DNA from: a virus
Length of the DNA stretch: 55,227 nt
Reading direction: 5' to 3' (one strand)
IMG/VR virus record: IMGVR_UViG_3300032282_000541
Coordinates: 1-55,227 of that record
Shown: positions 22,413 to 24,987 of the stretch, piece after piece
How positions within the stretch are numbered: the stretch's first letter is position 1
How the letters are laid out: each line of letters starts with the position of its first letter
Made by a program: the position numbers and the translations under genes
Notes under the pieces: model-generated
Database searches by the model: none
Told to the model about the DNA's origin: nothing
Seen by the model: only the letters and a program-made list of their open reading frames with translations

Positions 22413-22640
22413 TTCTGAAATGGTGATTGTTGAATCTACTCTGTTGATATGCATAGTTCCTGTGGTCACAAAATTCCAGTCGTGATCGTTGGGGTCTGCC
22501 TCAGTGTGTGAGTGGGCCAACAGCCAAACCCTCTTGCAAATCCATTCTTTGCCAGTCTCATCGAACACACGCCACTTGTGATCGATGGTGCCCCTGCCGG
22601 GTTGCCCGGCAGACTTGTTGTATCTGATCCTGAATTTCAT
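22407..22640 (-). CDS. Small beta-rich hypothetical protein
   Basis: 77 aa from the ATG at 22640 with GGAGGT just upstream, overlapping the oxygenase stop. Strands are apparent (MKFRIRYNKSAGQ; HKWRVFDETGKEWICKRVWL; TGTMHINRVDSTITISEI). It may work with the 2OG oxygenase that is translated first. No family is recognised. Confidence 0.6.
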   Translation of the reverse strand: MKFRIRYNKSAGQPGRGTIDHKWRVFDETGKEWICKRVWLLAHSHTEADPNDHDWNFVTTGTMHINRVDSTITISEI

Positions 22641-23272
22641 ATCACCTCCACGTCGGGCTCTTGTGGCTCTGGTGCTACTGCCACCGATAGGTTCATGTGA
22701 ACGAACCTCATGGGCTCTTGGCTCATGTTTTTGGTGAAAGAGTGGGGTAGCCATGCATTTGCAAATATCAGGGTTCCTGCATCCGGCGTGAACACGACTT
22801 GATGTGATCCCATGGTGATCTTGTTGGCATCCTTCTCAGGCAGGTTGATGATCACCTTGGCGTGCCTCGGATCGTGCAATACCAGCTTGCATGAGTTCTT
22901 GGGTGCGTCGATGAAATAGAACGCACTGATCTGCACTCCATGGCCGTGGATATGGGTTTCCATTGAAGACATGTGGCTGTGTTCTTGCGTCCACATCTCA
23001 GTGAAGAACGTCACCAAACTATCCATGTTGTAGCCCTGCGACTCAAGAATGTTCCATGCGGTCTGCGACACGTACCGGGAAAACTCTTCCAACTCTGGTT
23101 CATGTGCATAGGTTCCGGTCATAAGGGTGGCACCTTTTGAACCTTCACGATTGGCTTCTTCATACCTCGAAGACACTGTGCGAACTGCCTCCAAAAACTC
23201 AGGTTTTTTCACCACATAAATCGGGCTGGCAAAGTAGTGCGCTTCTTCAAGTTTGTCCATTCGTTTCTCCAA
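22637..23272 (-). CDS. Putative 2-oxoglutarate/Fe(II) oxygenase
   Basis: 211 aa, GGAGAA upstream, led by operator site 5. The double-stranded beta-helix signature can be followed. HIHGHGVQISAFYFIDAP (His107/109/111) supplies the first metal ligands. LIFANAWLPHSFTKN has the distal His177, and EPMRFVHMNLSV supplies an Arg189 for 2OG. Phage members of this class are thought to hydroxylate protein or nucleic-acid targets. The usual HxD is replaced by HxH, as in a subset of phage enzymes, so activity is likely but not certain. A small beta protein is coupled downstream. Confidence 0.7.
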   Translation of the reverse strand: MEKRMDKLEEAHYFASPIYVVKKPEFLEAVRTVSSRYEEANREGSKGATLMTGTYAHEPELEEFSRYVSQTAWNILESQGYNMDSLVTFFTEMWTQEHSHMSSMETHIHGHGVQISAFYFIDAPKNSCKLVLHDPRHAKVIINLPEKDANKITMGSHQVVFTPDAGTLIFANAWLPHSFTKNMSQEPMRFVHMNLSVAVAPEPQEPDVEVI

Positions 23273-23285
23273 ATAAATTCACGTC

Positions 23286-23305
23286 AGTCTAACATAGGGT
23301 TTGAT
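23286..23305 (-). promoter_or_regulatory. Operator/promoter site 5 (degenerate)
   Basis: TCTAACATAGGGTTTGAT keeps one good half-site and overlaps the extended -10 TGTTAGACT (minus strand). It leads the 2OG oxygenase gene. The second half is degenerate and no leader hairpin is evident, so regulation may be weaker here. Confidence 0.5.
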
Positions 23306-23314
23306 TCTTCAGTC

Positions 23315-23334
23315 AAAAAAATCGGAGGCTCTCC
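23315..23334 (-). terminator. Weak terminator-like hairpin
   Basis: On the minus strand GGAG, a 3-base loop, CTCC and GA are followed by seven T. The stem is short, but it lies exactly where the structured RNA segment would have to end before promoter site 5. Confidence 0.45.
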
Positions 23335-23580
23335 CCCTTATTGACTCCTTATCAATCCTTTCACCCAAAGACCCCCCTACCCCAGACGGAGTAGAGAGGG
23401 AAGGTGCTTCACCCCACTTGCGTGGATCATCATGTGAACGGTTTTACGTTCGACCCCTCGGCTTGATGATTCGACCAGCCGACTGGATTATTCGGGAACT
23501 GCCCCCTAGCCTTGCGGCATACCAGCTACGCTTTCCTTCCGCGCCACCACGACTGGGGTGCTTACTTTCGTGCGGAGTAC
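23335..23580 (-). ncRNA. Candidate structured RNA with tetraloops and a pseudoknot
   Basis: No convincing reading frame exists in this stretch. On the minus strand two hairpins are capped by GCAA (GNRA) loops: CCAC-GCAA-GTGG (23414-23425) and GCC-GCAA-GGC (23509-23518). A 6-bp stem pairs 23458-23463 with 23477-23482. Its loop (23464-23470) can pair with 23426-23432 over 7 bp, giving a pseudoknot that encloses a GAACG/CGTTC hairpin (23436-23451). More distant complements also exist: ACCCCAG with CTGGGGT. The length, phage setting and adjoining tRNA recall the large ornate phage RNAs such as GOLLD, but I cannot claim membership. The strand is chosen from the tetraloops and T-runs. Confidence 0.5.
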
Positions 23581-23597
23581 GGCAGGGGTGAGAAAAC

Positions 23598-23691
23598 AAA
23601 AAAAGCCGTTAAGACAAACCCCGGTGAGAACTCATCCCCCTTTTGAGAGGATGGCACCCCATGCGGGGTCGGAGTTTGACTTAACGGCTTT
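23598..23691 (-). terminator. Large terminator with a structured apical domain
   Basis: A 12-bp perfect stem (23602-23613 with 23680-23691) continues for 5 bp after one mismatch (23615-23619 with 23674-23678). The minus-strand RNA ends in seven U. The apex carries two more hairpins: CATCC/GGATG (23633-23653) and ACCCC/GGGGT with an ATGC loop (23656-23669). It would terminate leftward transcripts that pass through the tRNA. A 20-codon frame starts at 23694, just before the stem. Confidence 0.75.
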
Positions 23692-23780
23692 CATTTGCAC
23701 AGGTTCTCACGCCTTGCAATTCAAATTCTATCAACAGGTCTCACGACATGTCAACACCAAAAACAAAATGGTGTCGCATT

Positions 23781-23855
23781 TGGTAGCGGGGGCTGGATTC
23801 GCACCAGCGATCTACGGGTTATGAGCCTGTCGAGTTACTACTTCTCCACCCCGCA
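23781..23855 (-). tRNA. tRNA with CAT anticodon, initiator (fMet)-like
   Basis: 75 bases including an encoded CCA end. The cloverleaf reads closely like bacterial initiator tRNA. Acceptor bases 2-7 are GCGGGG, paired with CCCCGC. Position 1 (T) cannot pair with position 72 (T), the mark of initiators. The D stem has A11:T24, another initiator trait. The loop is CTCATAA (anticodon at 23821-23823). Only two of the three G:C pairs typical of the anticodon stem remain (an A opposite C replaces the third), and the D loop lacks the usual GG. The T loop reads TGCGAAT. The gene overlaps the end of a Cys-rich frame upstream. Confidence 0.85.
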
Positions 23856-24103
23856 ATAAGTTGTCGGCTACTTGCATTGTCTGGTTGACAATTAAGCAAC
23901 GTGGCGGTCTAGGCCATCCTTCAGCATCCGCTTTCACCAACAAGAGTATGGACTGTTTGCAGTTGCGACCTGCACAGAGCATCGGGATGAATGACTTGGG
24001 TTCGGCTGGCTTGCAAGACACCTTACCGCAGAGGTCACATGACCGACTTCATACCTGCCAATCCACACACTTGTTGGCGTTGGCGTTTACAGTCCACCAA
24101 CAC
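23812..24103 (-). pseudogene. Broken zinc-ribbon-like gene (frameshift)
   Basis: Two overlapping frames together resemble one Cys-rich protein. The first (GTG at 24103 or 24097 to a TGA at 24035) contains VDCKRQRQQVCGLAGMKSVM. The second, open from 24048 to 23812, continues with CDLCGKVSCKPAEPKSFIPM and LCAGRNCKQS. Joining needs a one-base shift at ATG-TGA-C near 24037. The second frame has no good start that includes CDLCG (a GTG at 24021 is possible). Its last codons run into the tRNA. Either a mutation, a sequence error or a programmed shift could explain this. Confidence 0.4.
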
Positions 24104-24117
24104 GACCTTCTAGAGGG

Positions 24118-24987
24118 TCAGGAATATACCATTTCTTTTTTCTTCAGTTCCATGACCTTCGCAACGACCGCAAAAAGGCTTTCCCTTTGATGCAGGTCGT
24201 TGGCATCCCATCCCACAGTATCGGCCATCGTCCAAGGCAAACCTGTACTTATTGCCGATTTTTCTCCAGTCTTAGATTCATCGTTGTCGGCAAAAACATA
24301 CACCCTGCCGGGCACCTGATCGGCCACCTGCACCATGTTGCTGGCGCTGAAGCACACAACCACCGCCGCAGGCATGCCAACGCTCTTCAGGGCGTGTTTT
24401 AAGGACATCCCTGTGGCTACCCCTTCGACCAGCCAACTCTCGCCTGCATCGCGGTTTCCCAGCGTCAGGACGGCGTTCTTTGCCCTCATGCCATGGAGCA
24501 TCTTCTTTTCATACTTGCGAGTCTCTACGTCCCATCTGATCGACTGGTAGCCCTGCAACTTGTTGGTCACCACGTTCCGCATGGGGATCAACAGTTTGTC
24601 GTCCAGCACCAGCCCACGGGCTTCCTTGAACCCTTTGATCTCAAGGTAGGGGTGGTAGTCCTGCTTGGCCGACCGCAGGGTGATGTCAGCCTGCAAGGCG
24701 GCGTACTCGTACTTCTTGTCCTGTTCGCTGGCCGCTGTGGATCGTTTAGCCGCCCATGCACGCTTTTCTTCGTCAGTCCATGGTTTGGCATGCGGGTCTT
24801 CGTACCAGATCACTCTGGCCTCTCCTGACCAGTCCATGACCCATCCACGCTCACCATCCCAGAAGTAGGCACCATTGCCGGACTTTGGCTTCTCTACGGT
24901 GCCACACCGCTTGATCTTGTCGGACGCATACAGGCGGGTGTGATCAATCTCAACACCATGGGCTCGGGCAAAGTCAACGAAACGCAT
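24118..24987 (-). CDS. TOPRIM DNA primase-like protein
   Basis: 289 aa. The C-terminal part is a TOPRIM domain: LVEGVATGMSLKHAL with Glu188, then RVYVFADNDES with Asp234 and Asp236. The region before it (LLIPMRNVVTNKLQGYQSIR) matches the part of phage primases that precedes TOPRIM. A small N-terminal segment (to about 60) has one Cys and GAYFWDGERGWVMDWSGEAR, as in primases with reduced zinc parts. It would prime replication, working with the SF2 helicase gene two positions upstream. No DnaB-type helicase domain is fused, unlike many phage primases. Confidence 0.8.
   Translation of the reverse strand: MRFVDFARAHGVEIDHTRLYASDKIKRCGTVEKPKSGNGAYFWDGERGWVMDWSGEARVIWYEDPHAKPWTDEEKRAWAAKRSTAASEQDKKYEYAALQADITLRSAKQDYHPYLEIKGFKEARGLVLDDKLLIPMRNVVTNKLQGYQSIRWDVETRKYEKKMLHGMRAKNAVLTLGNRDAGESWLVEGVATGMSLKHALKSVGMPAAVVVCFSASNMVQVADQVPGRVYVFADNDESKTGEKSAISTGLPWTMADTVGWDANDLHQRESLFAVVAKVMELKKKEMVYS

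What the first reader, a model, noticed from the sequence alone, without database searches (positions are those of the whole stretch)
23315..23580. Candidate structured RNA with GNRA loops and a pseudoknot
About 250 bases without a gene can fold on the minus strand into two GCAA-capped hairpins and a pseudoknot enclosing a third hairpin, with a T-run after a short stem at the end. Such clustering next to a phage tRNA recalls large phage RNAs like GOLLD, but the sequence may be new.
Basis: partly seen in the sequence, partly recalled or inferred. Interest (0 to 1): 0.7.

Follow-up and report, generated by a model that had tools for sequence, protein, structure and literature searches.

The report
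New phage RNA with three pseudoknots
The gene-free stretch encodes a real folded RNA that more than a hundred different phage sequences share and that matches no catalogued RNA family; its fold is confirmed by matching mutations, but what it does in the infected cell is not yet known.

Summary
On 65 diverse members, a 60-pair structure with three pseudoknots is 96% paired, with 461 double-change cells against 124±11 in shuffles. No Rfam 15 family matches, even at E≤10. The two GCAA hairpins, the hairpin-enclosing pseudoknot and the terminator are real; the GCAA loops themselves are not conserved. tRNA proximity is incidental (3 of 62 loci). What recurs is replication/recombination genes (55 of 62), a sigma-70 promoter, and a second structured element upstream ("RNA1", terminator-like, with a loop-apex pairing conserved by compensation). 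In relatives of this phage, the slot after the Toprim primase holds just one of three RNAs: this one (20, plus two hybrids), Rfam RF02932 Betaproteobacteria-1 (18), or a third unnamed one (3), suggesting equivalent roles. Best reading: a standalone, early, trans-acting phage RNA of a new family. Family and fold are shown; expression, partner and function are inferred. It is not a GOLLD or ROOL.

The parts
23725..23754 (-). sigma-70 promoter TTGACA-N18-TAGAAT for the RNA1-RNA2 unit
   Evidence: 11 of 12 consensus matches, the only promoter-like site in the intergenic region (0.5 expected); a promoter of at least 8 of 12 upstream of RNA2 in 93 of 116 homologous loci tested, a permissive filter
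23598..23718 (-). RNA1: 5' hairpin whose loop pairs with the apex of a long terminator-like stem (AAAGCCGTTAAG...CTTAACGGCTTTTTTT)
   Evidence: loop-apex helix 23710-23703 with 23631-23624; 22 of 23 class-A relatives keep at least 7 bp, permuted mean 8.1, max 15; all classes 19.3 vs 14.3±0.39. RNA1 classes A-F precede RNA2 in most loci
23355..23586 (-). RNA2 (the finding): ~225-nt structured RNA core with three pseudoknots
   Evidence: cmsearch 249.6 bits for the window, which was in the training set; 168 fetched stretches by nhmmer, 127 distinct RNA sequences; covariation
23538..23576 (-). RNA2 pseudoknot 1 (23576-23572 with 23542-23538), crossing the 3-bp hairpin 23581-23579 / 23571-23569
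   Evidence: 96% of cells paired; pair at columns 14-47 switches GC to AU in 24 of 65 sequences
23529..23551 (-). RNA2 pseudoknot 2 (23551-23549 with 23531-23529), from the loop of hairpin 23560-23545
   Evidence: 100% paired; middle pair is GC in 33 and CG in 29 of 65 sequences
23482..23526 (-). RNA2 stem 23526-23522 / 23486-23482 enclosing two hairpins (the first GCAA hairpin 23518-23509, and 23506-23494)
   Evidence: 100% paired, 4 of 5 pairs with double changes; insertion point of 100-200 nt in about 25 loci
23426..23481 (-). RNA2 hairpin 23481-23459 with pseudoknot 3 (23470-23464 with 23432-23426) enclosing hairpin 23453-23435
   Evidence: 99.8% of cells paired in the 7-bp pseudoknot, 5 of 7 pairs with double changes
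23414..23425 (-). RNA2 second GCAA hairpin
   Evidence: 86.5% paired, 3 of 4 pairs with double changes
23372..23399 (-). RNA2 3' hairpin: drifting pyrimidine strand opposite the near-invariant G strand GGGGUAGGGGGG
   Evidence: 92.9% paired, mostly one-sided C/U changes opposite fixed G
23360..23413 (-). direct repeat GGUGAA on either side of the 3' hairpin: first copy 23413-23408, second copy 23365-23360
   Evidence: the two copies change together: 31 of 65 full matches, permuted mean 14, max 21
23314..23337 (-). intrinsic terminator-like end of RNA2 (GGGGGAGAGCCTCC then GATTTTTTTG)
   Evidence: not above chance on its own: 1 found, 1.2 expected; position kept in the window's group, replaced by other endings elsewhere

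Best explanation
RNA2 belongs to a new family of phage-encoded noncoding RNAs. Shown by sequence: a near-consensus sigma-70 promoter, then RNA1 (a terminator-like hairpin whose apex pairs with the loop of a 5' hairpin), then ~20 nt, then RNA2, a compact RNA with three pseudoknots, then in this phage a terminator of its own and a fresh promoter-like motif for the next gene. Inferred: host RNA polymerase makes the transcript early in infection; most transcripts stop at RNA1, and read-through yields RNA2. RNA2 acts in trans as a free RNA or RNA-protein complex on a host or phage component of the replication/transcription phase, because it sits among replication genes of unrelated phages, has no fixed target gene beside it, and is exchanged one-for-one with the Betaproteobacteria-1 RNA in the same slot.
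For: Covariation of all three pseudoknots. 127 distinct RNA sequences in at least three phage lineages. Promoter-like sequence upstream in 93 of 116 loci tested. Terminator plus new promoter-like motif after RNA2 in the window's group. Mutually exclusive RNA2 / RF02932 / third RNA in one slot. The nearest clustered downstream gene is convergent in 12 of 77 loci, only 6-7 nt away in three, so RNA2 is not generally a leader. Downstream genes differ between lineages.
Against: No transcript data. In many loci the next same-strand gene starts within 100 nt, which also fits a leader. A terminator between promoter and RNA2 is odd for a highly expressed RNA. No protein or RNA partner found. Replication genes sit near most early-region features, so proximity is weak evidence of function. 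Three loci (L155, L285, L236) follow a terminase-like gene instead.
Confidence: 0.5

Rival explanations
1. Cis-acting early leader: RNA1 is an attenuator and RNA2 an RNA that acts on the RNA polymerase that made it (like HK022 put) or senses a signal, to control genes downstream.
For: Nearest clustered downstream gene on the same strand in 65 of 77 loci, often within 100 nt. A terminator hairpin lies between promoter and RNA2. The 5' strand can pair with both the apex and the linker before RNA2, 19.3 vs 14.3 and 14.5 vs 11.7 permuted, and RNA2 has a co-varying direct repeat: both look like competing partners.
Against: Terminator and new promoter-like motif after RNA2 in the window's group; convergent gene 6-7 nt downstream in L227, L237, L260; no conserved downstream gene; RNA2 lies after, not before, the terminator it would have to suppress.
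Confidence: 0.28
2. Replication RNA: RNA2 primes or opens the phage origin, like ColE1 RNA II, its invariant G-rich strand forming a persistent RNA-DNA hybrid or G-quadruplex.
For: Near-invariant strand GGGGUAGGGGGGUCUUUGGG while the opposite strand drifts between C and U; neighbours are primase, helicase and replication-initiation genes.
Against: GC skew shows no turn at the site; the 30 nt after the core are barely more AT-rich than context (0.53 vs 0.50); the conserved U's in the strand go beyond a G-run; Betaproteobacteria-1 in the same slot has no such G strand.
Confidence: 0.1
3. Ribozyme or self-processing RNA: the matched direct repeats mark cleavage or ligation points, and RNA2 is a catalytic core.
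For: Many invariant loop purines and three pseudoknots, two matched repeats around the 3' hairpin, variable insertion in a peripheral stem, as in catalytic RNAs.
Against: No match to any Rfam ribozyme or intron; no interrupted gene; no intron-borne protein.
Confidence: 0.08
4. A coding or DNA-level element: an overlapping small gene, or a single-strand DNA hairpin.
For: Open frames of roughly 90-150 codons overlap it in many loci.
Against: Frames and strands differ between loci; indels and compensating changes follow pairing, with C-G to U-G shifts only sensible for RNA of the minus strand.
Confidence: 0.02

Closest known systems
Betaproteobacteria-1 RNA (Rfam RF02932)
   Same: Occupies the same slot after the Toprim primase, behind the same RNA1 module, in sister phages. 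Both have a GUGAAG-type motif just before a 3' hairpin and a CGCAC...UAGC stretch near the 5' end, which may hint at distant kinship.
   Different: No sequence or covariance-model match between the two; different stems; Rfam models only 120 nt of it.
GOLLD RNA
   Same: Phage-borne structured RNA of unknown function with a variable 5' part and a conserved 3' part, sometimes near a tRNA (PMC12286853).
   Different: ~225-nt core against more than 800 nt; no Rfam match; tRNA proximity in only 3 of 62 loci.
ROOL RNA
   Same: Phage/prophage RNA with multiple pseudoknots and no known partner (PMC12286853).
   Different: No Rfam match; not tied to tRNA islands.
HK022 put RNA (antitermination; from general knowledge)
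   Same: Phage RNA near an early promoter, no protein needed; a model for the cis rival.
   Different: put is shorter, has two hairpins and lies before the terminators it suppresses; here a terminator precedes the RNA.

Membership tests
GOLLD / ROOL | Match to the family's covariance model | tested here: not met
   cmscan of 22600-24200 at E≤10 lists neither; window-wide gathering scan lists only the tRNA
GOLLD / ROOL | Encoded near tRNA islands | tested here: not met
   tRNA within 2.5 kb in 3 of 62 loci
GOLLD / ROOL | Homo-oligomeric RNA nanocage | not testable with these tools
   needs cryo-EM or native sizing of the transcript
Betaproteobacteria-1 (RF02932) | Match to the Rfam model | tested here: not met
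   window region gives no match at E≤10, whereas sister locus L013 gives 86.3 bits
Betaproteobacteria-1 (RF02932) | Same genomic slot (after Toprim primase, behind RNA1) | tested here: met
   this RNA (20 + 2 hybrids), RF02932-like (18) or a third RNA (3) in 43 of 46 primase loci, never two together
HK022-type put antiterminator | Suppresses downstream terminators in cis without protein | not testable with these tools
   needs in vitro transcription; the order terminator-then-RNA2 argues against it
Self-splicing intron / known ribozymes | Rfam ribozyme or intron match, or an interrupted gene | tested here: not met
   no such match; RNA lies between genes
Structured noncoding RNA family (general) | Compensatory base changes across divergent homologues | tested here: met
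   461 double-change cells vs 124±11; 0 of 500 shuffles as high

The most novel reading that the evidence does not exclude
RNA1 plus an exchangeable RNA2 (this RNA, Betaproteobacteria-1 or the third type) is one unrecognised two-part phage RNA system: a terminator-like sensor or gate with a loop-apex pairing, followed by one of several analogous effector RNAs, that serves a shared early function in many unrelated phages.
Probability: 0.45. Interest if true: 0.85.

Novelty: new variant of a known kind. Interest (0 to 1): 0.72.

Why it matters
Few phage-encoded structured RNAs of this complexity are known, and the best-known large ones (GOLLD, ROOL) have no assigned function. This family is widespread, has a comparatively proven fold and a testable promoter and terminator layout, and shares its slot with an Rfam RNA for which I found no described function. 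That turns two orphan RNAs into one question that can be tested in an isolate: Acidovorax phage AP1 carries the sister type in the same slot.

Tried and rejected
Rfam at gathering and at E≤10: nothing but the tRNA and chance hits. Isolated phages and plasmids: only a partial hit in MW202753 and none in plasmids. Bacterial genomes: 7 pattern hits, none a convincing model match (best 8.3 bits); of 399 genomes of one order, one weak match of 25.8 bits, again after a Toprim primase-like gene. Host RNA complementary to the G strand: no, 1 of 41 genomes, and that one is the contig already found with the motif. GC-skew sign of an origin: no. Coding potential of 23861-24117: the frame is broken in relatives. 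tRNA link: rejected. A column-wise covariation count for RNA1 was not made because its 5' loop was misaligned by one base; a permutation test was used instead. Literature: no held paper describes it; the 2017 survey that I recall as describing Betaproteobacteria-1 is not held.

Full report
WHAT WAS CHECKED. The minus strand between the Toprim primase gene (24987-24118) and the 2OG-Fe(II) oxygenase gene (23272-22637) has no convincing gene; it holds a tRNA-Met (23855-23781) and the reported element. Rfam 15 gives only the tRNA at gathering score and only chance matches at E≤10. Folding the reported 266 nt alone is unremarkable (z -1.41), so comparison was needed.

HOMOLOGUES. Relatives of the two neighbouring proteins in IMG/VR showed 70-90% identical DNA in the gap, even where the primase was only 65% identical (L041). 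An iterated profile finds the RNA in 168 of 288 sequences held, the window included. Some of these are stretches of the same contig; 127 have distinct RNA sequences. In about 25 loci the hairpin at 23518-23509 carries an insertion of 100-200 nt.

STRUCTURE. 65 full-length sequences (mean identity about 69% in the 71-member set) were aligned. A structure of 60 pairs in 12 helices, three of them pseudoknots, was counted: 96.0% of cells paired against 83.0±0.3 shuffled, 461 double-change cells against 124±11, covariation score 0.396 against 0.162±0.005, all 0 of 500. Sliding partners by 1-3 columns gives 37-48% pairing. The structure was read off these same sequences, which helps it against the slid versions, but the two measures that count pairs and pair types are also never reached by shuffles. 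RNAalifold, run without my structure, recovers seven of the twelve helices, 16 of its 36 pairs with double changes. Changes such as C-G to U-G only make sense for RNA of the minus strand. The covariance model scores 249.6 bits on the window, which was among the sequences it was built from.

THE UPSTREAM ELEMENT. About 20 nt before RNA2 most loci have a terminator-like hairpin with a T-run, of several distinct sequence classes. Upstream of it is a sigma-70 promoter (window: TTGACA-N18-TAGAAT, 23754-23725, 11 of 12; at least 8 of 12 in 93 of 116 loci tested). The 5' hairpin loop of this RNA1 pairs with one strand of the apex of the terminator stem: across classes mean helix score 19.3 against 14.3±0.39 for permuted partners; in 23 class-A members 22 keep at least 7 bp with 20 distinct strands, permuted mean 8.1, maximum 15 in 2000 permutations. 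The same 5' strand also matches the linker just before RNA2 (14.5 against 11.7±0.31), so it may switch partners; this is the weaker test, as the linker windows varied in length. Relatedness of loci is not removed by these permutations.

ONE SLOT, THREE RNAs. Behind the Toprim primase of this phage's relatives, 46 loci have enough sequence. The slot holds this RNA in 20 (two more have its 5' half joined to a different 3' half), an RNA of the RF02932 Betaproteobacteria-1 type in 18 (86.3 bits in L013, gathering score 49.4; the others by similarity to L013), a third RNA without an Rfam match in 3 (L012, L035, L039), and none of these in 3. No locus has two. Acidovorax phage AP1 (OM049504), an isolate, has the Betaproteobacteria-1-like RNA directly after its primase. 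A weak relative of the 5' half lies in a genome of the order of G001 (a Burkholderiaceae MAG), also directly after a Toprim primase-like gene. The two main types have no detectable homology; a shared GUGAAG before a 3' hairpin and CGCAC...UAGC near the 5' end is only a lead.

CONTEXT. At least three lineages carry RNA2: primase/helicase phages like the window; phages with Sak annealing protein, PD-(D/E)XK or YqaJ nuclease on one side and primase-helicase or replication-initiation genes on the other; and a small group behind what reads like a terminase C-terminus (L155, L285, L236; by eye). 55 of 62 loci with enough flank have replication/recombination genes within 6 kb. tRNAs lie within 2.5 kb in 3 of 62.

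STANDALONE OR LEADER. In the window's group RNA2 ends in a terminator-like hairpin with T-run, and a new extended -10 motif (TGTTAGACT, 23294-23286) precedes the next gene; that motif follows RNA2 within 130 nt in 38 of 127 loci. The nearest downstream gene of a recurring cluster is convergent in 12 of 77 loci, ending 6-7 nt away in three. RNA2 cannot be the leader of those genes. But in 65 of 77 it is on the same strand, often within 100 nt, so a cis role remains open in part of the family. Gene calls were rough (longest non-overlapping frames, then filtered by recurrence).

MECHANISM. Shown: fold, strand, promoter-like and terminator-like sequences, slot sharing. Inferred: early transcription, termination at RNA1 with read-through to RNA2, action in trans on replication or transcription machinery. 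The strictly kept G strand (GGGGUAGGGGGGUCUUUGGG) opposite a drifting pyrimidine strand, and the direct repeat whose two copies change together (31 of 65 full matches against 14 permuted, maximum 21), point to a sequence-specific partner or a switch not yet identified; an antisense match in host genomes was not found.

NOVELTY. No Rfam match and no paper found in the held library. It is a new RNA family of a known general kind (phage-encoded structured noncoding RNA), not a member of GOLLD, ROOL or Betaproteobacteria-1. Preprints and most subscription papers could not be searched, so an unindexed description remains possible.

Noticed in passing
window 24085-23936 (-): Another noncoding stretch between primase and tRNA with an imperfect long hairpin (CCAACAAG...CTTGTTGG). 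It is 72% identical to DNA in the phage MW202484 (L003) and to a different place in L026 (1003-1150); reading frames are broken in relatives, so it may be a third structured RNA.
   Followed up: partly
L013:5038-5262 and 17 further primase loci: The Betaproteobacteria-1 RNA of these phages is conserved for about 80-100 nt beyond the 120-nt Rfam model RF02932, including a 3' hairpin.
   Followed up: partly
L012:2873-3450, L035, L039: A third, longer RNA in the same slot after RNA1, with no Rfam match.
   Followed up: partly
RNA2 3' part, e.g. window 23413-23408 and 23365-23360: Direct repeat (GGUGAA, GUGGAA, GAGGAA, AUGGCAUA ...) whose two copies on either side of the 3' hairpin change together between loci; unexplained.
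   Followed up: partly
downstream of RNA2 in 11 loci (e.g. L113, L121, L188): A further conserved element GACACGGCTAGGT..CCAGACCG..GCCGCTGTTTCTTT follows RNA2, possibly another RNA or a terminator.
   Followed up: no
MW202545.1 5652-6109: Two annotated hypothetical proteins (UOF78434.1, UOF78433.1) lie across RNA1 and the Betaproteobacteria-1-like RNA and are probably spurious.
   Followed up: no
L026:5008-5262, L027:5024-5278: Natural hybrids: the 5' half of RNA2 joined to an unrelated 3' half, showing that the RNA is modular.
   Followed up: partly
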